Source of the DNA: Bordetella parapertussis
Lineage (GTDB): Bacteria > Pseudomonadota > Gammaproteobacteria > Burkholderiales > Thiobacillaceae
Length of the DNA: 64,000 bases
Reading direction: 5' to 3'
Assembly: GCA_945890495.1 (NCBI GenBank)
Contig: CAMDCO010000006.1
Location: 1-64,000, forward strand
Of this stretch, positions 10,601-19,970 are shown one piece after another (the stretch's first letter is position 1; every line of letters starts with the position of its first letter). The position numbers and the translations under genes were made by a program. Below the pieces are notes generated by a model that searched no databases, was not told the origin of the DNA, and saw only the letters and a program-made list of their open reading frames with translations.

Positions 10601-11403
10601 GCGGCAAACAGACCCTCACCGCCTGGCCCGCCCTCGTTGAAGAGGCCGACGGGCGCGTCAGCCTAAAACCGCTCGACCACCGTGACGCCGCCCTCACCGC
10701 CCACCGGCGCGGCGTGTTGCGCCTCTACTGGCTGGGCCAGGGCGCACGCCTCAAACAAACCCACGCGACCGTCGCCCAGCGCCTCAAGACCGCCTTGCTC
10801 GCCTACGGGCTATGGGGCGGTCAAAGCGAAATCCTGATCCGCGATGTGCTCTACGCCGCCGCGCTCAAACTCGCCCCCACCGATCCCGCCAGCCTTCGCG
10901 ACCCAGCCGAGATACGCGACCGTGCCGCCTTCGAGACGCTAAACCGCCTGCCGCCCGGCGAACTCTCCAGCGAGGCCGACCGCCTCGCCCAGCTTGCCGC
11001 GCAATGCATCACCCACGCACACACCCTGCAAGGGCGACTAGCCAAGCTTCCCGCCCCCTGTGCCGCCGCCGCGAAAGACATCAGCCAACAACTCACCGGC
11101 CTCGTCTCCGTCGGCTTCATCGCCAGCCACCCACCCCAGCGCCTGCACCACCTGCCACGCTACCTCACCGCCCTTGAGCGCCGCTTAGAAAAGCTCCCCC
11201 GCGACCTAGTCCGCGACACCCAAAACCTGCGCGACATGGCCCCCCTTATCCAAGCCACCGCCACCCTCAAGGGCGAAAAAGCCACCGAGTTTCGCTGGGC
11301 ACTAGAAGAACTGCGCGTCTCCCTGTTCGCCCAAGAACTCAAGACCCCCGAACCCATCTCGATCAAACGGCTAGAAAAACGGTTGGCAGAAATACGGCGC
11401 TGA
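7633..11403 (+). CDS. hrpA: ATP-dependent RNA helicase HrpA
   Basis: DEAH-box helicase of 1256 residues, close to the usual ~1300. Walker A GETGSGKT (residues 46-53), DEAH (151-154), the SAT motif (ILSSATLEADRF) and QRAGRCGR are all present, followed by the HA2/ratchet and OB-fold regions and the long HrpA-specific C-terminal domain. HrpA unwinds RNA, processes fimbrial mRNA in E. coli and helps resolve stalled ribosomes. GTG 7633 is the likely start. The accessory region begins right after its stop codon. Confidence 0.95.
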   Translation: MPLPPHQPTATPAAPRIEFPVELPVAAHRDAIIKAIQQHQVIIVCGETGSGKTTQLPKLAWLARQGTGQNNDTRRPRRIGMTEPRRIAARSVAQRLAQETETPLGQFIGWKVRFTDEAGPATRIKVMTDGILLAETQGDPQLSAYDTIILDEAHERSLNIDFLLGFLHDLLPRRPDLKLILSSATLEADRFSKWFHGAPVIEVSGRTYPVEMRYRPIEEAEAAKEAADGDLHAALLAATDELARHGPGDILVFLPGEREIREAQEALRKHHPDHTEILPLFARLSIAEQDRIFQSHTGRRIVLATNVAETSLTVPGIRYVIDTGLARVKRYSLKNRIEQLKTEKIAQAQANQRAGRCGRLGPGVCIRLYAEADFQSRPNYPTPELLRSSLAGVILRMKSLDLPDIADFPFLDAPEPRRIKDGQQLLAELGAIDADNALTEIGRQLARLPVDPRIGRMLIAGHKHACLHEILVIAAFLSVQDPRERPMDRAPAADEKHRRFTHPRSDFLAILNLWQHIAAQVAHRKSQRKLREQLHGEFLSPLRIREWREVYNQLTSLVKELGFPTRDEPPAPGEDPWAARYAPIHQALLTGLLGNLGFLTEDNTYLGARDIRFLPFPGSSVKQKPKWIMAAEIVETRRIYARTVARVEPEWIEAAGEHLLKFSYSDPHWEKKPAQVNALLKATLYGLPVVNERRVHYGPVDPTLCRDLFIRHALVRGEWESRAPFFRHNLDLLTELDELTQRTRNARIEVDEEVVVAFFAARLPPDIHTGAGLDRWRRNAEKADPRLLFLERADLFPAHHPNLDAHPERLDWADQHWKLSYRFEPGAADDGVTLVAPIEALNQIPAARCEWLVPGFIEARIDALIRSLPQGLRRNFVPVPDYARAAAAALTPSDTPLTETLADFLETRSGVRIPHDAWREEALPPHLRMNFRLLDAEGHRIDESRDLDALRNTHGHTAQSHLASASTHLERDNLTHWDFEALPEQISLQRGKQTLTAWPALVEEADGRVSLKPLDHRDAALTAHRRGVLRLYWLGQGARLKQTHATVAQRLKTALLAYGLWGGQSEILIRDVLYAAALKLAPTDPASLRDPAEIRDRAAFETLNRLPPGELSSEADRLAQLAAQCITHAHTLQGRLAKLPAPCAAAAKDISQQLTGLVSVGFIASHPPQRLHHLPRYLTALERRLEKLPRDLVRDTQNLRDMAPLIQATATLKGEKATEFRWALEELRVSLFAQELKTPEPISIKRLEKRLAEIRR

Positions 11404-11428
11404 AACGAATTCCAGCTACTCGCCCATC

Positions 11429-11572
11429 AAGCCCGGGCGATGCCACGCCTGGTTGAGGCAGGTGATAAGGAGCACGGGTTTCAATCCGCGCCCGGTCCGA
11501 AGACCGGGCGATGCTAGGGGGCGGTGGAGATGCTACAAGCATCGGATTTGGTTTCAATCCGCGCCCGGTCCG
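11429..11572 (+). CRISPR. Relic CRISPR mini-array: one full repeat, two partial repeats
   Basis: A 37-base unit at 11478-11514 begins GTTTCAATCC, has a perfect stem CGCCCGGTC/GACCGGGCG around CGAA, and ends GATGC: the classic layout of a type I/III repeat. A second copy keeps only its first 22 bases (11551-11572). A third, to the left, keeps its last 15 bases with one mismatch (11429-11443). The spacers are 34 (11444-11477) and 36 bases (11515-11550), normal sizes. No cas gene is in the window, so this is a decayed array remnant. Confidence 0.75.
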
Positions 11573-11587
11573 TTACAAGGAGCCGCT

Positions 11588-11821
11588 ATGTCACAAATCA
11601 CGCTCTATCTGGATGATGCCACGCGGGCATTAGTGGATCAGGCCGCTCAGGCCAATGGGGTGTCGAAAAGCCGTTGGGTGGCGGAGATTATCCGCAAGCA
11701 CGCTCATCAGGAGTGGCCCAAGGCCTGCCTGGAACTGGCCGGAAAGTTCCCGGACTTCCCTTTGCTTGAGGCTGACGGCTCAAGCGGCATGCCGGCCGAT
11801 GCGCCGCGCATCGGGTTTTGA
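11588..11821 (+). CDS. Ribbon-helix-helix (CopG-like) antitoxin
   Basis: A 77-residue protein starting at ATG 11588 behind AAGGAG. The N-terminus (SQITLYLDDATRALVDQAA, then NGVSKSRWVAEIIRKH) is a ribbon-helix-helix DNA-binding fold, and the C-terminal tail is the usual toxin-neutralising extension. The partner gene directly downstream is a broken vapC (11832-11928), so this is an orphaned antitoxin that may still bind DNA. Its ribosome-binding site lies only a few bases after the truncated CRISPR repeat. Confidence 0.8.
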   Translation: MSQITLYLDDATRALVDQAAQANGVSKSRWVAEIIRKHAHQEWPKACLELAGKFPDFPLLEADGSSGMPADAPRIGF

Positions 11822-11831
11822 GGGGCAGATC

Positions 11832-11928
11832 GTGCTGATCTTCGATCAGTAACATCATCAGCTATTACCTTCGCGGCGACCCGCAGGTCGTGCCGCGCCT
11901 GCAAGCCCTTTCCCCCGTCGACATCGGC
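11832..11928 (+). pseudogene. Frameshifted and truncated vapC (PIN-domain toxin) remnant
   Basis: From GTG 11832 the frame reads VLIFD and then hits a stop. Removing one base after GAT restores SNIISYYLRGDPQVVPRLQALSPVDIG, which is a clear PIN-domain N-terminus (D-S/T-N-I-I-S-Y-Y). Homology stops at the slyX 3' end, so about three quarters of the gene is missing, including the remaining acidic catalytic residues. The toxin is therefore inactive. It follows the intact antitoxin at the spacing expected for an ancestral vapBC operon. Confidence 0.8.
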
Positions 11929-12135
11929 TCAGTAATGCGGCGGTCTTTCCTGTGCGATGAGGCCTTCGTTTCCCGCATCGGATAGCGTGCGCAGTTGCCG
12001 GGCAAGCGTCTCGAAAAGGGTTTCGAGCTGTTCCAACTTCTGCTGTTGCGCGTAAACCGTCTTGTTGAGCGTTTCGATCAGGTCTTCTTGAAAGGCCAGT
12101 TTAATTTCAATATTCACCAAGCGTTCTTCGTTCAT
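11929..12135 (-). CDS. slyX: SlyX family protein
   Basis: A 68-residue protein with a coiled-coil body (FQEDLIETLNKTVYAQQQKLEQLETLFETLARQL) and the diagnostic C-terminal end RPPHY of SlyX. Function is unknown in general; the name comes from proximity to slyD in enterics. The vapC fragment abuts its stop codon on the opposite strand, consistent with foreign DNA having landed between hrpA and slyX. Confidence 0.9.
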   Translation of the reverse strand: MNEERLVNIEIKLAFQEDLIETLNKTVYAQQQKLEQLETLFETLARQLRTLSDAGNEGLIAQERPPHY

Positions 12136-12242
12136 GCGCCAACTCTGAATGTATTGCGACAGGCAGCCATTTTAGTTCAACAGGGCGGGAACCCGGGGTG
12201 GGGGTTACAACCGATTCTCCGGCACAAGAAGCAGGAGCGGCA

Positions 12243-12338
12243 ACAGGGTCAGGTCTTTCAACATAACATTACATTTTTGCTGAATTTTCATACACTCGCA
12301 TGGCACAGGGGATGTGATAGTGAAAGACCTGACCCCGT
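12243..12338. mobile_element. 96-bp element with 18-bp terminal inverted repeats (MITE-like)
   Basis: The left end, 12243-12260, and the right end, 12321-12338, are inverted copies of TGAAAGACCTGACCCCGT with one mismatch in 18. The interior is AT-rich, in contrast to the surroundings, and encodes nothing. GGTCAGGTCTTTC-type ends occur on short dispersed elements in many proteobacteria, so this is probably a non-autonomous insertion or a REP-type element in the slyX-rhodanese gap. Confidence 0.65.
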
Positions 12339-12354
12339 CTTTGCAAACAAGTGA

Positions 12355-12777
12355 TCAGCACGCCGCGCAGCTTTCGAGCGGTAGTCCGCGCCGGGTCCAG
12401 CCAGGGCCGGCGGCGCTGCCGGCCATGCCTTCCTTGACATTGAACACTTGGGTGAAGCCCTGCTGTTGCAGGAATTTCTGCGCTTGAGTGGTGCGGTTTC
12501 CGGTGCGGCAAATGAGGGCGATGGGCGCATTGCGGTCGCCCTTGGCCTCTTGCAGAACACCACGCAGCAGATGCTCTGCCCCGCGATACATGTCCACACG
12601 GCCCGCGCCTGGGGCCACGCCCGTTTGCCGCCATTCCTGTGGGGTGCGGATATCGATCAATCTCACCTTGCCGCTTTGGGCGGCCTCAAACGCCTCGGGC
12701 GCGGTCATGTCCGGTTCGGCACTGGCGGCCAGCGGCAGTAGCGTGAGGGCAAAGACGAGGGAGCGCCAAAACGGCAT
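12355..12777 (-). CDS. Exported rhodanese-like sulfurtransferase
   Basis: About 140 residues. ATG 12777 is preceded by AGGAGA, and the protein opens with a signal peptide (MPFWRSLVFALTLLPLAASA). One rhodanese domain follows, with VRLIDIRTPQEW and the active-site loop CRTGNRT; the first Cys is the persulfide carrier. The family moves sulfane sulfur; the periplasmic location suggests a role in sulfur or cyanide chemistry there. The C-terminus ends in CAAC, two extra cysteines worth noting. Longer upstream starts would add a proline-rich, unconserved leader. Confidence 0.88.
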   Translation of the reverse strand: MPFWRSLVFALTLLPLAASAEPDMTAPEAFEAAQSGKVRLIDIRTPQEWRQTGVAPGAGRVDMYRGAEHLLRGVLQEAKGDRNAPIALICRTGNRTTQAQKFLQQQGFTQVFNVKEGMAGSAAGPGWTRRGLPLESCAAC

Positions 12778-12895
12778 ACCAATTTTCTCCTGTGGCGGGG
12801 GGCGGGGGACTTGGGGGGCGAACACTACCACGCCGATGGCATGGGGATGGGACAAATGCGCGGCTGGCGTAATGTTAGGGAAGCACTGATCAAAT

Positions 12896-12920
12896 CCTTC
12901 GACAGGCTCAGGACGAACGG
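12896..12920. repeat. Dispersed repeat TTCGACAGGCTCAGGACGAA
   Basis: CCTTCGACAGGCTCAGGACGAACGG lies alone in the 277-base gap between the rhodanese and hicB genes. Its core (given in the call) is a motif I remember as frequent in intergenic regions of many bacteria. The rest of the gap, 12778-13054, shows no ORF, terminator or strong promoter to me. Confidence 0.5.
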
Positions 12921-13054
12921 TAACCCTATAATTCCATTCGTGGTTAGCTTATAGAACCGTAGGCGGAATCGAATAAATAAGGCGCTAGGTGATTTGGAGT
13001 AGGTAAGGGCATTGCCGGGTGCGTGACACTACAAAACAGCACCATTACGACTAA

Positions 13055-13396
13055 TCAAGCGGCGTGAATTTCGTGGCGAATCGCCTTCTCAACTAGTGCA
13101 TTCAGACTGATGCCAGTGGCAACGGCCACCGCCGATGCCTTGGCATGGAGACTCGGCGGCAGGCGCACTACAAATTTCCCACTGGCCCGCTTGCGCGGCT
13201 CCATGCCGTGTTTGGCGCAAGTCTCAAGAAAAAAATCGAGCGATGTGCGAAATTCACGACGCAAATCGTCCGGCGTGCGGCCATAAAAATCCGCGCCCCC
13301 GTTTAGCCCCTGAATCTCACCACGAAATTCGTCGGTTTCCGGATTAAAGCGAATCACGGCCGTGTAGCCGTCCAGTTCCATCGTATTCATCGTCAT
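13055..13396 (-). CDS. hicB: HicB family antitoxin
   Basis: A 113-residue antitoxin: an N-terminal RNase-H-like HicB domain (GYTAVIRFNPETDEFRGEIQGL, FYGRTPDDLRREFRTSLDFFLETC) followed by a ribbon-helix-helix DNA-binding segment (GKFVVRLPPSLHAKASAVAVATGISLNALVEKAI). It neutralises HicA and represses the operon. ATG 13396 overlaps the hicA stop as ATGA, the usual coupling. Confidence 0.9.
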   Translation of the reverse strand: MTMNTMELDGYTAVIRFNPETDEFRGEIQGLNGGADFYGRTPDDLRREFRTSLDFFLETCAKHGMEPRKRASGKFVVRLPPSLHAKASAVAVATGISLNALVEKAIRHEIHAA

Positions 13397-13650
13397 GGCG
13401 TTACTCCGTGTTGTTCCAACCAGTCGCGTATGGCGGTGACCGCGCCTTTGTCCATATTGGGCGAAGGATGGGGTTTGTGCAGCACTCGCACCTCGCCAAA
13501 CAGCACCACACCTACGCGTGAACCCTCGCGGTCTATCTCAATCAGCGCGCCGAGTTCGGTCAGCAAGGCCATCACATCACTGTGCTTTACATTCGCCGAT
13601 ACCGGTCGGTGAAAGATCAGCACGAGTGTTTTGGCGTGTTTGCGTTTCAT
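13393..13650 (-). CDS. hicA: HicA family toxin (mRNA interferase)
   Basis: An 85-residue double-stranded-RNA-binding-fold toxin starting at ATG 13650 (MKRKHAKTL); the upstream in-frame extension contains the promoter and is rejected. It carries GSRVGVVLFGEVRVLHKPHP followed by DKGAVTAIRDWLEQHG, the variant HicA type in which the canonical catalytic His after GS is Arg and the histidines lie in HKPHP. It cleaves translated mRNA when free of HicB. Confidence 0.88.
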   Translation of the reverse strand: MKRKHAKTLVLIFHRPVSANVKHSDVMALLTELGALIEIDREGSRVGVVLFGEVRVLHKPHPSPNMDKGAVTAIRDWLEQHGVTP

Positions 13651-13657
13651 CGGTCTT

Positions 13658-13685
13658 ATGATACTAACAAACAGTATCTTGTCAA
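13658..13685 (-). promoter_or_regulatory. hicAB promoter with internal palindromic operator
   Basis: On the minus strand a perfect -35 hexamer TTGACA (13680-13685) is followed after 16 bases by TATCAT (13658-13663), 7 bases before the hicA ATG. A 6-bp inverted repeat GATACT/AGTATC (13660-13678) sits between and over these elements. Binding of the HicB ribbon-helix-helix domain there would block RNA polymerase, fitting known HicAB autoregulation. Confidence 0.75.
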
Positions 13686-13741
13686 GCCTACGGCTAATCC
13701 AAGGGAGGGTTACCCGCACCAACCAAAAGCATCCGCTTCGG

Positions 13742-13936
13742 CTATTTCCCCGGCGGGTTGACCTTCAGCCAGATGCGCGTCTTACGCGCCCATCGCCAGA
13801 CATATTGGGTGCCCGAAAAGGCGGCCAGCGCGGCGGTAATGACGATGGGTGGCGGGAAGGCGATCTTTCCTTTCAAGCCGTTGACAACTGCGGTAGCGAC
13901 CGCTGTTGGTTCGACATTGTAGCCATCCGGGGGTAT
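13742..13936 (-). pseudogene. Displaced 3' fragment of a pgsA copy
   Basis: On the minus strand a frame of 64 codons with no start codon ends TAG 13742-13744. Its last ~40 residues (ITAALAAFSGTQYVWRWARKTRIWLKVNPP) match the C-terminus of the complete pgsA product at 15060-15632 almost exactly, then diverge (GK instead of EG). The N-terminal portion of the frame (about 13868-13936) does not resemble pgsA. This is a second pgsA 3' end separated from the intact gene by the fic islet. Confidence 0.8.
13750..13866. repeat. Left copy of ~117-bp direct repeat flanking the fic islet
   Basis: Starting CCGGCGGGTTGACC, this copy matches 15068-15183 with a single difference in the first 58 bases and about a dozen over the full length. 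It is the DNA form of the duplicated pgsA 3' end and marks the left border of a 1318-bp unit containing fic. Confidence 0.8.
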
Positions 13937-14008
13937 CTAACCAATAATCTTTCCAAATATGGTTAGATAGTAGATAATTCCTTGAGAATCATGAGGTAAA
14001 TCTAACCA
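13934..14008 (+). promoter_or_regulatory. Three-site operator of the fic gene
   Basis: TATCTAACCA at 13934-13943 and its exact inverse TGGTTAGATA at 13960-13969 form a 10-bp perfect inverted repeat with a 16-base spacer. A third copy, ATCTAACCA, at 14000-14008 lies between the GAGG ribosome-binding site (13993-13996) and the ATG, sharing the A of the start codon. The N-terminal HTH of the Fic protein is the obvious candidate binder, implying autoregulation. Confidence 0.75.
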
Positions 14009-15009
14009 TGAATGACTTGCTTGATTTTGTCAGCGCCCATCCAAAGGGGGTGTCAGCGACCGAGCTTGAACGACATTTCAAGCTCAGCCGTACGACATTG
14101 AATCGCCGTCTGAGGGGTGAGCGGCTGGCGGGAACCCTGGTGGTCACCGGGAAAGGCCCAGCCACCCGTTACCACAGCGCCGACCCGCTATCTGCCTTGC
14201 GCGCTTACTTTGCGAACCCGTATACGGAGCGGGTGGTGGCACCCTATCTTGAAACGAAACTCGAGCCCACGCCCGATCTGGCTGCCGAATCCGTGCAACC
14301 GTTTGCAGATCTCCCAGAATACCTGCTGAATAGGCGTGAACTCGGGAAGTTCCTGATCGATTTTTCCTGCTCGTCCTCGATTCTCGAAGGTGGAACTTAT
14401 TCGCTGCTGGATACGCAAGCCTTGCTTGAGTACGGTGAGAAGTCCGCAGGGAAGTCATTGGAAGACGCCGTCCTGGTCTTGAACCACAAGGATGCCTTTG
14501 AGTATCTCTACGACCATATGGAACTGGATTCGATCTACACGGTGCATGGCCTGCTGACCAACGACCATGATTTCCCGGAGTTGAAGGATTCTGCCCACTT
14601 CCTTTCCCATGAGTACCGCGGGGTGGCGCGCGAGTACAGTGAAGTGGACATCCGCTTTAGCACCTACCTACCGCCCTTCAGACCGGGTACCGGTTATATC
14701 AAAACGATGCTGGAACGGGTATTGGCCACGGCCGCCGACATCACCAACCCGATCCAGGCGGCGTTTTATCTGCTGACACGGATTGCTTACCTGCAGCCGT
14801 TCCAGGACGGGAACAAGCGTACCTCCCGGGCAATCTGCAATGTGCCTCTGATCAAGGCAAAGCTACCGCCGATATCGTTTGTTGATTTCGGCAAACAGGA
14901 CTACATCGTTTCAACGCTGGCGTTCTATGAACTGGGCGACATCAGGCTCTTCGAGCGTTGTTTTGTGGAAGCCTACAAAAAATCCATCCGCCGGCTTGGC
15001 GTCCGGTAA
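14008..15009 (+). CDS. HTH-Fic domain protein with Gln in place of the catalytic His
   Basis: A 333-residue protein: N-terminal winged helix (residues 1-48, VSATELERHFKLSRTTLNRRLRG), a linker, an inhibitory-type motif S123xxxE127G, and a Fic core ending at QPFQDGNKRTSR (263-274). In Fic AMPylases this motif is HPFx(D/E)GNxRxxR and the His is the catalytic base; here it is Gln (codon CAG). The anion-binding GN and the later Arg residues are kept. I recall related Fic-like proteins with QPF, so this may be a subfamily without classical AMPylation. It lies alone in an islet between two pgsA 3' ends and has its own operator array. Confidence 0.88.
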   Translation: MNDLLDFVSAHPKGVSATELERHFKLSRTTLNRRLRGERLAGTLVVTGKGPATRYHSADPLSALRAYFANPYTERVVAPYLETKLEPTPDLAAESVQPFADLPEYLLNRRELGKFLIDFSCSSSILEGGTYSLLDTQALLEYGEKSAGKSLEDAVLVLNHKDAFEYLYDHMELDSIYTVHGLLTNDHDFPELKDSAHFLSHEYRGVAREYSEVDIRFSTYLPPFRPGTGYIKTMLERVLATAADITNPIQAAFYLLTRIAYLQPFQDGNKRTSRAICNVPLIKAKLPPISFVDFGKQDYIVSTLAFYELGDIRLFERCFVEAYKKSIRRLGVR

Positions 15010-15059
15010 TCCGTGGCCACCGGCCATCGGGATGCCCGGACAAAGAGGGCCGCTCGCGG

Positions 15060-15632
15060 CTAACCCTCCGGCGGGTTGACCTTCAGCCAGACGCGCGTCT
15101 TACGCGCCCATCGCCAGACATATTGCGTACCTGAAAAGGTGGCCAGCGCGGCGGTCAGGGCGATGAGCAGCGGGAATACGGCCACGATTTCGGTACTGAG
15201 CAGATGCTGGCCGAGCAACAGGCTGATGAGGACGAACTCGGCGAAGGTGGCGACCTTGCCGCCCAGCGTGGGGGCCACATCAAGATGACCGGTGAGGTTT
15301 AGCCAAGCGGCTGCGCCCACCAGGACGGTGACATCACGCAGGACAACGATGAGGGCCAGCCAAACCGGCAGGATGCCTTGATCGGCAAGGAGCAGGATGA
15401 CGGTGAGCAGCATGGCCTTGTCGGCCAGTGGGTCAAGCCAGGCCCCGAGGGCACTTTTCTGATTTAGAAGCCGGGCAAGGTAGCCATCAAAAAAGTCGGT
15501 GACGGCGGCGATGACGAAATAGACGAAGGCTCCGGGCAGGTCGCCTTCCAGCAAGCGCCACGCCACAAAGGGCACCAGGATGAAGCGCCCCAGGGTGAGC
15601 AGGTTGGGAATCGTGTACAGGCGATTGTCCAT
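15060..15632 (-). CDS. pgsA: CDP-alcohol phosphatidyltransferase (PgsA-like)
   Basis: Integral membrane enzyme of about 190 residues that joins a CDP-diacylglycerol-derived phosphatidyl group to an alcohol such as glycerol-3-phosphate. The complete signature D-x2-DG-x2-AR-x8-G-x3-D-x3-D is present (DFFDGYLARLLNQKSALGAWLDPLADK region, about residues 46-72), with hydrophobic segments on either side. Start at ATG 15632 (MDNRLYTIPN) is preferred to the ATG at 15641. PgsA itself or a cardiolipin-synthase-like paralogue cannot be separated with certainty. Its 3' end is duplicated at 13742-13866. Confidence 0.85.
   Translation of the reverse strand: MDNRLYTIPNLLTLGRFILVPFVAWRLLEGDLPGAFVYFVIAAVTDFFDGYLARLLNQKSALGAWLDPLADKAMLLTVILLLADQGILPVWLALIVVLRDVTVLVGAAAWLNLTGHLDVAPTLGGKVATFAEFVLISLLLGQHLLSTEIVAVFPLLIALTAALATFSGTQYVWRWARKTRVWLKVNPPEG
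15068..15183. repeat. Right copy of ~117-bp direct repeat (3' end of pgsA)
   Basis: The homologous partner of 13750-13866, forming the last ~40 codons of intact pgsA. The two copies are nearly identical over the last ~20 codons and diverge upstream, the pattern expected if an element supplied a replacement 3' end on integration. Confidence 0.8.
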
Positions 15633-18626: not shown

Positions 18627-19970
18627 ATGTCATCCACTCCTGAATCCATCTCGAAGCATCTTGCCATAGGCCCGCGCTCTGCGCGTCAACTCATTGAATA
18701 TTATAGAGTCAGTCAACCCACAGTGTCGCGCATCCTCAAGGGACTTGAGAGCGAAATCGTTCGAATCGGTGCGGCACGATCTATTCAATACGCGTTGCGT
18801 GACCGACTGCGAGGATTGCCCGACATCCCGGTTTATCGGGTGGACGCCGAAGGAAAGGTGCAAAAACTGGGCCTCCTGATTCCCGTGCGCCCCGAAGGTT
18901 TTGTCATGCGTCAGGAAGAGGGCATCACGCAACATAGTGAGAGCCTCCCCTGGTGGGTTTTCGACATGCGACTTCAAGGCTATCTAGGCCGTGCCTATGC
19001 CGCACGCCATGGCGCAATGCTCGGACTGCCCGAACGACTGACCGACTGGACGGATACCCATGCGTTGCTGGCATTGCTGGCCCATGGGCAGGATGTCATT
19101 GGCAATCTTTTATTGGGCGATTGGACACGCGACCGTTTTCTGACGGCCCCTCCCCCCATTTCAATCCCTGCACCGAAAAAACCAGAAGCCTATGTCCAAC
19201 TGGCCAAAAATGCCGCGCAGGGCGACCTGCCCGGTTCTTCCGCCGGCGGTGAACAACCGAAATTCACCGCGTTTGTCGAAACACCGGAAGGCCCACGCCA
19301 TGTCATCGTGAAATTTTCCGAACAGGAAAAAGGCCCCGTCAGCGAACGCTGGCGCGATTTGTTGTTGGCCGAACATCACGCATTGAACACGCTCGGAGGA
19401 GCCGGCTTCTCGGCAGCAAAAACACACCTCATCGACCATGAAGGGCAACGCTTTCTGGAAACAGAACGATTTGATCGCATCGGTTCTCAGGGACGGCAGG
19501 GCATTCTCTCGTTGGCCGCACTGGATGCGGAATTTGTCGGAGCCGGCGCGAACGGCTGGCCCCTCCTCACTCAGCGATTGGCCGCAGAAAAACATATTCC
19601 TCCTGAAGCGGCCGATCAGGCGGCATTTCTGTGGGCGTTCGGCACATTGATCGGAAATACCGACATGCACCACGGCAACCTGTCCTTCATCTCTAAACAG
19701 GAACGCCCCGACCGCCTGGCCCCGGCCTACGACATGACCCCCATGGCGTTTGCGCCGCGTACAGGGGGCGGATTGCCCGACACACTTTCAGAAGCCGTTA
19801 TCCACGCCAGCGTCTCCAACGAAACCTGGCGACACGCCGAAAAATGGGCGCGTGCGTTCCTCGGTCGCATCCAATCTGAATCAAGATTTAGCCAGCGATT
19901 TATTCCGTGCATCGTCGCACTGGATCATCACATTCAAACCGCAAGAGCAAAGATTGAACGGCTGGGGTGA
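18627..19970 (+). CDS. yjjJ: Solo HipA-family kinase toxin with N-terminal HTH (YjjJ type)
   Basis: A 447-residue protein. Residues about 18-40 (SARQLIEYYRVSQPTVSRILKGL) are a helix-turn-helix, then a HipA N-terminal domain, then the kinase: glycine-rich SSAGGEQPKF (204-213), ATP-lysine in VIVKF (229), catalytic GNTDMHHGN (343-351) and the metal-binding Asp in AYDMTP (369). HipA kinases phosphorylate aminoacyl-tRNA synthetases and cause dormancy. No separate hipB is present, as in E. coli yjjJ, so the HTH may serve as built-in antitoxin or repressor. Codon use is somewhat more AT-rich than its neighbours, suggesting acquisition. Confidence 0.9.
   Translation: MSSTPESISKHLAIGPRSARQLIEYYRVSQPTVSRILKGLESEIVRIGAARSIQYALRDRLRGLPDIPVYRVDAEGKVQKLGLLIPVRPEGFVMRQEEGITQHSESLPWWVFDMRLQGYLGRAYAARHGAMLGLPERLTDWTDTHALLALLAHGQDVIGNLLLGDWTRDRFLTAPPPISIPAPKKPEAYVQLAKNAAQGDLPGSSAGGEQPKFTAFVETPEGPRHVIVKFSEQEKGPVSERWRDLLLAEHHALNTLGGAGFSAAKTHLIDHEGQRFLETERFDRIGSQGRQGILSLAALDAEFVGAGANGWPLLTQRLAAEKHIPPEAADQAAFLWAFGTLIGNTDMHHGNLSFISKQERPDRLAPAYDMTPMAFAPRTGGGLPDTLSEAVIHASVSNETWRHAEKWARAFLGRIQSESRFSQRFIPCIVALDHHIQTARAKIERLG

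What the first reader, a model, noticed from the sequence alone, without database searches (positions are those of the whole stretch)
13742..15183. A 1.3-kb fic islet bounded by two pgsA 3' ends
Seen: the last ~117 bp of pgsA (15068-15183) recur in the same orientation at 13750-13866. Between them lies 1.3 kb holding only the fic gene and its operators. The copies are nearly identical at the 3' end (one mismatch in 58 bases) and diverge inward, both keep an in-frame stop, and the left copy has no start codon. Known: elements that integrate in the 3' end of a gene carry a replacement end and displace the native one. Inference: this looks like such an integration, but with no integrase, so it could be a minimal unit moved in trans or a remnant of something larger.
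Basis: partly seen in the sequence, partly recalled or inferred. Interest (0 to 1): 0.75.

Follow-up and report, generated by a model that had tools for sequence, protein, structure and literature searches.

The report
Toxin-type gene between duplicated pgsA ends
A small stretch of acquired DNA carrying two self-regulated toxin-type modules sits beside the lipid-synthesis gene pgsA, with a broken second copy of the end of pgsA inside it; this looks like a scar left when acquired DNA paired with pgsA by ordinary recombination, not like a new kind of mobile element.

Summary
The repeat is real. The last ~120 bp of pgsA (15057-15176, - strand) recur in the same orientation at 13739-13858 (88% identity, 1318 bp apart), and only fic and its operators lie between. 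The match is mosaic: a 58-bp tract with one mismatch, flanked on both sides by divergent sequence (12/50; Fisher p=0.0005). Three same-genus relatives have a single pgsA 3' end. In the most syntenic one (G001), everything from ~12,858 to 15,062 is missing, so the insertion is a ~2.2-kb low-GC islet: repeat element, hicBA, pgsA scar, fic. It is not a 1.3-kb fic unit.

I found no integrase in the islet, no third copy of the core in the genome, and no other C-terminal-only pgsA fragment among 117 family genomes. One genome of another genus (G061) has two nearly full pgsA copies in direct orientation around ~6.2 kb carrying ParE- and HigB-type toxins. The close fic relatives lie elsewhere and lack this bracketing.

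Best reading: fic arrived on DNA carrying a pgsA 3' end, and that end served as homology for RecA-type recombination, leaving a truncated duplicate. Site-specific integration is possible but unsupported. This is a modest example of a known process.

The parts
15060..15632 (-). pgsA (CDP-alcohol phosphatidyltransferase), intact; its 3' end is the right copy of the repeat; C-terminus NPPEG*
   Evidence: Pfam PF01066 3e-31; TIGR00560 3e-27, below its curated cut-off; 92% aa identity to G001
15057..15176 (-). right copy of the direct repeat (functional pgsA 3' end)
13739..13866 (-). left copy: truncated pgsA 3' end, no gene body, ends NPPGK*; no significant similarity to pgsA further inward
13752..13809 (-). 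58-bp core tract, 57/58 identical to 15070-15127
14008..15009 (+). HTH-Fic protein, intact, 333 aa; motif QPFxDGNKRTSR (Gln in place of the catalytic His)
   Evidence: PF02661 1.3e-8; six relatives at 69-70% identity; motif
13934..14009 (+). operator-like repeats of fic: TATCTAACCA, TGGTTAGATA, ATCTAACCAT
   Evidence: ATCTAACC also lies just upstream of fic in relatives
13396..13650 (-). hicA-like toxin
   Evidence: PF07927 7e-7
13055..13396 (-). hicB antitoxin
   Evidence: PF05534 3.8e-19
13660..13678 (.). GATACT/AGTATC palindrome upstream of hicA (probable operator)
   Evidence: sequence shown
12874..13016 (.). short interspersed repeat at the left edge of the insertion; about 25 full or partial matches in the genome
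12346..12873 (.). native flank: rhodanese-like gene and spacer that abut pgsA directly in G001

Best explanation
Shown: a low-GC islet of about 2.2 kb (repeat element, hicBA, pgsA scar, fic) lies in the interval between two convergent genes, where close relatives have a simple junction. Inferred: fic was brought in on DNA from a related cell that carried a pgsA 3' end. That end paired with the resident pgsA through RecA-type recombination. The event was either homology-facilitated illegitimate recombination of a linear fragment (one homologous join, one illegitimate join about 110 bp before the resident stop) or a single crossover of a circularised fragment. Either route gives pgsA a new but functional 3' end, places fic behind it, and strands the old 3' end as the left copy. 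The 58-bp tract is the region that was matched or later homogenised. No integrase is needed.
For: Single pgsA ends in three congeners and a direct rhodanese-pgsA junction in G001. GC falls from ~0.64 to ~0.48-0.59 across ~12,875-15,000. The repeat is mosaic: inward of the core the left copy is as far from the right (34/42) as from G001 (34/42), while in the core the two copies share 57/58 and differ from G001 at 11-12 of 58 (Fisher p=0.0005). The two copies share 7 core states not found in G001 and G004. The present pgsA end NPPEG* is atypical and the left copy keeps NPPGK*. The last ~120 bp of pgsA are less like the congeners than the rest of the gene. ComEC is present in all five genus genomes. 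G061 shows pgsA duplicated at 87-94% around other toxin-bearing cargo. Precedent: HFIR, and circularisation with RecA-dependent single crossover (PMC3240628); displaced 3' ends in toxin loci (PMC5361080).
Against: No donor with fic directly behind pgsA was found. The polarity of left versus right differences is not significant with G001 or G002. HFIR is rare (PMC5361080). Neither route by itself makes the core identical: pre-existing identity or later gene conversion has to be added. The linear and circular versions are not separated by these data. The similarity of the 34 bp after the pgsA stop to the native spacer is only suggestive (p 0.003-0.017).
Confidence: 0.5

Rival explanations
1. Site-specific integration: fic is a minimal, non-autonomous element whose attachment site carries a replacement pgsA 3' end (icd/e14-like) and was mobilised by a recombinase acting in trans, or is the remnant of a larger element.
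For: Near-identical core bounded by divergence, reading frame and stop preserved, detached end behind the cargo, empty sites in relatives. Other tyrosine recombinases exist in the genome, two of them not XerC/D-like in length.
Against: No integrase in the islet; no third core copy in the genome; no other C-terminal-only pgsA fragment in 117 family genomes; close fic relatives at other places without such repeats; none of 2.9 million viral contigs holds the core pattern; pgsA-like homology extends inward of the core, which an attachment site would not need.
Confidence: 0.18
2. Local tandem duplication of the pgsA 3' end, followed by insertion of fic between the copies, with gene conversion keeping 58 bp alike.
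For: The two copies share derived states in the core. Tandem pgsA duplication does occur in the family (G061).
Against: The left copy's differences outside the core are of interspecies size and several left-copy states match congeners rather than the resident gene; a simple local copy should start identical. It also needs an extra insertion event.
Confidence: 0.22
3. Assembly artefact: two strain variants of the pgsA 3' end were joined in a metagenome-assembled contig.
For: The genome is a fragmented draft (40 contigs, 80.8% complete), consistent with a metagenome assembly; the congeners are named MAGs.
Against: Both flanks are syntenic with G001. The left copy runs into non-pgsA sequence and the fic operator, which a bubble between two pgsA variants would not create.
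Confidence: 0.07

Closest known systems
Homology-facilitated illegitimate recombination and single crossover of circularised fragments (PMC3240628)
   Same: Cargo joined through one stretch of homology; leaves a partial duplication; needs no integrase
   Different: Known from laboratory transformation and conjugation; here inferred from one old event whose donor is unknown
Displaced 3' ends in Rhs/CDI and T6SS effector loci (PMC5361080)
   Same: An incoming module leaves the resident gene with a new end and strands the old 3' end downstream
   Different: Here the gene is a housekeeping enzyme and the cargo is a separate gene, not a new toxin domain
Elements integrated in protein-coding genes with a replacement 3' end, such as e14 and phage 21 in icd (from own knowledge)
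   Same: Gene stays functional with an imported end; displaced native end beyond the cargo
   Different: No integrase, no recurrent site, 1.3 kb with one gene
HicAB and HTH-Fic modules
   Same: Small self-regulated units often found in variable gaps
   Different: Fic carries Gln where the catalytic His is expected

Membership tests
Site-specific integrative element with replacement gene end | integrase encoded in the element | tested here: not met
   only fic between the repeats; hicBA beyond
Site-specific integrative element with replacement gene end | identical core repeated at both ends with in-frame gene restoration | tested here: met
   57/58 core, both copies stop in frame
Site-specific integrative element with replacement gene end | empty sites in relatives | tested here: met
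   G001, G002, G004
Site-specific integrative element with replacement gene end | same core reused by other elements in other genomes | tested here: not met
   0 of 116 other family genomes has a C-terminal-only fragment (listing cut at weak matches); G061 duplicates nearly the whole gene
Site-specific integrative element with replacement gene end | excised circle with a junction in the core | not testable with these tools
   no reads available
Homology-anchored acquisition (HFIR or single crossover) | partial duplication of a homologous anchor next to non-homologous cargo | tested here: met
Homology-anchored acquisition (HFIR or single crossover) | divergent donor allele recognisable in one copy | tested here: inconclusive
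   C-terminus and segment identities lean this way; site polarity not significant
Homology-anchored acquisition (HFIR or single crossover) | DNA uptake machinery | tested here: met
   ComEC family PF03772 in all five genus genomes; presence only, competence not shown
Fic/Doc enzyme | catalytic HxFx(D/E)(G/A)N(G/K)R motif | tested here: not met
   fold family matches, but His is Gln in this protein and its six closest relatives
HicAB toxin-antitoxin | HicA and HicB domains in adjacent genes | tested here: met

The most novel reading that the evidence does not exclude
pgsA 3' ends in this family are a recurrent landing place for toxin-type modules, using a replacement gene end and a recombinase supplied in trans: a one-gene mobile unit with no mobility gene of its own.
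Probability: 0.12. Interest if true: 0.6.

Novelty: new member of a known kind. Interest (0 to 1): 0.33.

Why it matters
If the homologous reading is right, it is a clear natural footprint of how single-gene toxin-type modules can enter a genome next to an important gene without any transposase or integrase, leaving a readable scar. Scars of this kind could be searched for systematically to measure how often such modules arrive by recombination in shared gene ends.

Tried and rejected
A 1.3-kb unit limited to fic: rejected as the full insertion, because hicBA and the repeat element are also missing in G001. A full tandem pgsA in close relatives: not seen. A simple crossover inside the core as the cause of the core's identity: rejected, because a crossover swaps flanks but does not make the two cores alike. 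Further pgsA homology beyond 13866: not significant. The left inward peptide as part of another known protein: no Pfam match and only chance phage hits. Viral contigs with the core: none. Papers on pgsA as an attachment site: only pgsA-tRNA neighbourhood islands in Photorhabdus and Xenorhabdus, where the site is the tRNA; ARAGORN finds no tRNA in this window. A tblastx synteny comparison of G061 with its neighbours was too noisy to use.

Full report
OBSERVATION. The direct repeat is real: 13739-13858 and 15057-15176, 88% identical over 120 nt, both on the minus strand, 1318 bp apart. It is the only long direct repeat in the window, and the genome contains these two copies and no third. The right copy is the 3' end of an intact pgsA-like gene (PF01066; TIGR00560 best but below its cut-off). 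The left copy keeps the reading frame and a stop but has no gene body. Between them lie only fic (14008-15009) and three operator-like repeats, TATCTAACCA / TGGTTAGATA / ATCTAACCAT.

THE REPEAT IS A MOSAIC. A 58-bp tract has one mismatch. The 42 bp inward of it match 34/42, and the 8 bp before the stop end match 4/8. One mismatch in 58 against 12 in 50 gives Fisher p = 0.0005. This is not because the tract is slow to change: the resident gene and G001 differ equally inside it (46/58) and inward of it (33/42). At 80% background identity, 57/58 has a probability of about 4e-5. The two copies therefore have a shared recent history in the core and a separate one outside it.

EMPTY SITES. Same-genus genomes G001, G004 and G002 (named as betaproteobacterial or Burkholderiales MAGs) have one pgsA 3' end each. 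In G001 the rhodanese-like gene lies 78 bp from pgsA, and window 12346-12857 aligns up to that junction. So 12,858-15,062 is absent there, including hicBA, the left copy and fic. The stretch has lower GC than its flanks. Its left edge is a short repeat with about 25 full or partial matches in the genome. The hrpA-pgsA interval is variable in general: 29 bp to 1.8 kb in relatives, 3.66 kb here.

WHICH END IS NATIVE. G001 ends NPPGR*, G004 NPPGK*, the left copy NPPGK*, and the working gene NPPEG*. The last ~120 bp of the working gene are less like the congeners than the rest of it. At sites where the copies differ, the left copy agrees with G004 10:3, with G001 7:4 and with G002 4:5. This leans towards the working gene carrying an imported end and the left copy being the old one, but it is not proof.

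OTHER OCCUPIED SITES. A profile of the pgsA C-terminus over 117 family genomes found a C-terminal-only copy in this genome alone; the listing was cut only among weak matches. Self-comparison of 29 relatives' loci found no similar repeat, while the same test recovers the window's repeat at E = 9e-39. One genome of another genus, G061, has two nearly full pgsA copies in direct orientation (segments of 94% and 87% identity), one with an internal deletion and a lost end. They enclose about 6.2 kb that includes a ParE-type toxin and a HigB toxin. This points to homologous recombination. It could also be an unrelated duplication.

THE CARGO. The closest fic relatives (69-70%) are in six genomes of two other genera, at different places; none shows this kind of bracketing. 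hicB relatives in the family are at most 54% identical. fic and hicBA are therefore independent self-regulated modules that move by whatever route is available.

MECHANISM. Shown: insertion, mosaic repeat, intact pgsA with an atypical end, stranded second end. Inferred: a DNA fragment with a pgsA 3' end and fic used that end as an anchor. Homology-facilitated illegitimate recombination, or circularisation followed by a RecA-dependent single crossover, both have laboratory precedent (PMC3240628), and stranded 3' ends are described at toxin loci (PMC5361080). ComEC is present in all five genus genomes. A crossover alone does not make the two cores alike, so prior identity or later gene conversion must be added. 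An integrase acting in trans would also fit the anatomy, and the genome has recombinases, but nothing found here requires it.

VERDICT. The integration reading is partly right (an insertion with, probably, a replacement end), but the evidence for a dedicated element is weak. It is a good specimen of a known process.

Noticed in passing
window 14008-15009; L070-L075: The HTH-Fic protein and its six closest relatives all have QPFxDGNKRTSR: the catalytic His of the Fic motif is Gln throughout, though the rest is strongly conserved. A more distant family hit (L067) has it too.
   Followed up: partly
L119 3826-11310 (G061 contig C27): Two pgsA copies in direct orientation enclose about 6.2 kb with ParE-type and HigB toxins; the second copy has an internal deletion.
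   Followed up: partly
window 12874-13016: Short interspersed repeat (contains CCTTCGACAGGCTCAGGACGAACGG) with about 25 full or partial matches in the draft genome.
   Followed up: partly
window 18627-19970: hipA-like gene (PF07804) between a radical-SAM-type gene and a peptidase; G002 has the two neighbours side by side without it.
   Followed up: partly
window 11588-11821: Small ribbon-helix-helix antitoxin-like ORF (weak PF01402/PF08681) without an evident toxin partner; not found in the G001 locus.
   Followed up: no
window 11403-15060 and relatives: The interval between the convergent genes hrpA and pgsA varies from 29 bp to 3.66 kb across the family and holds different genes.
   Followed up: partly
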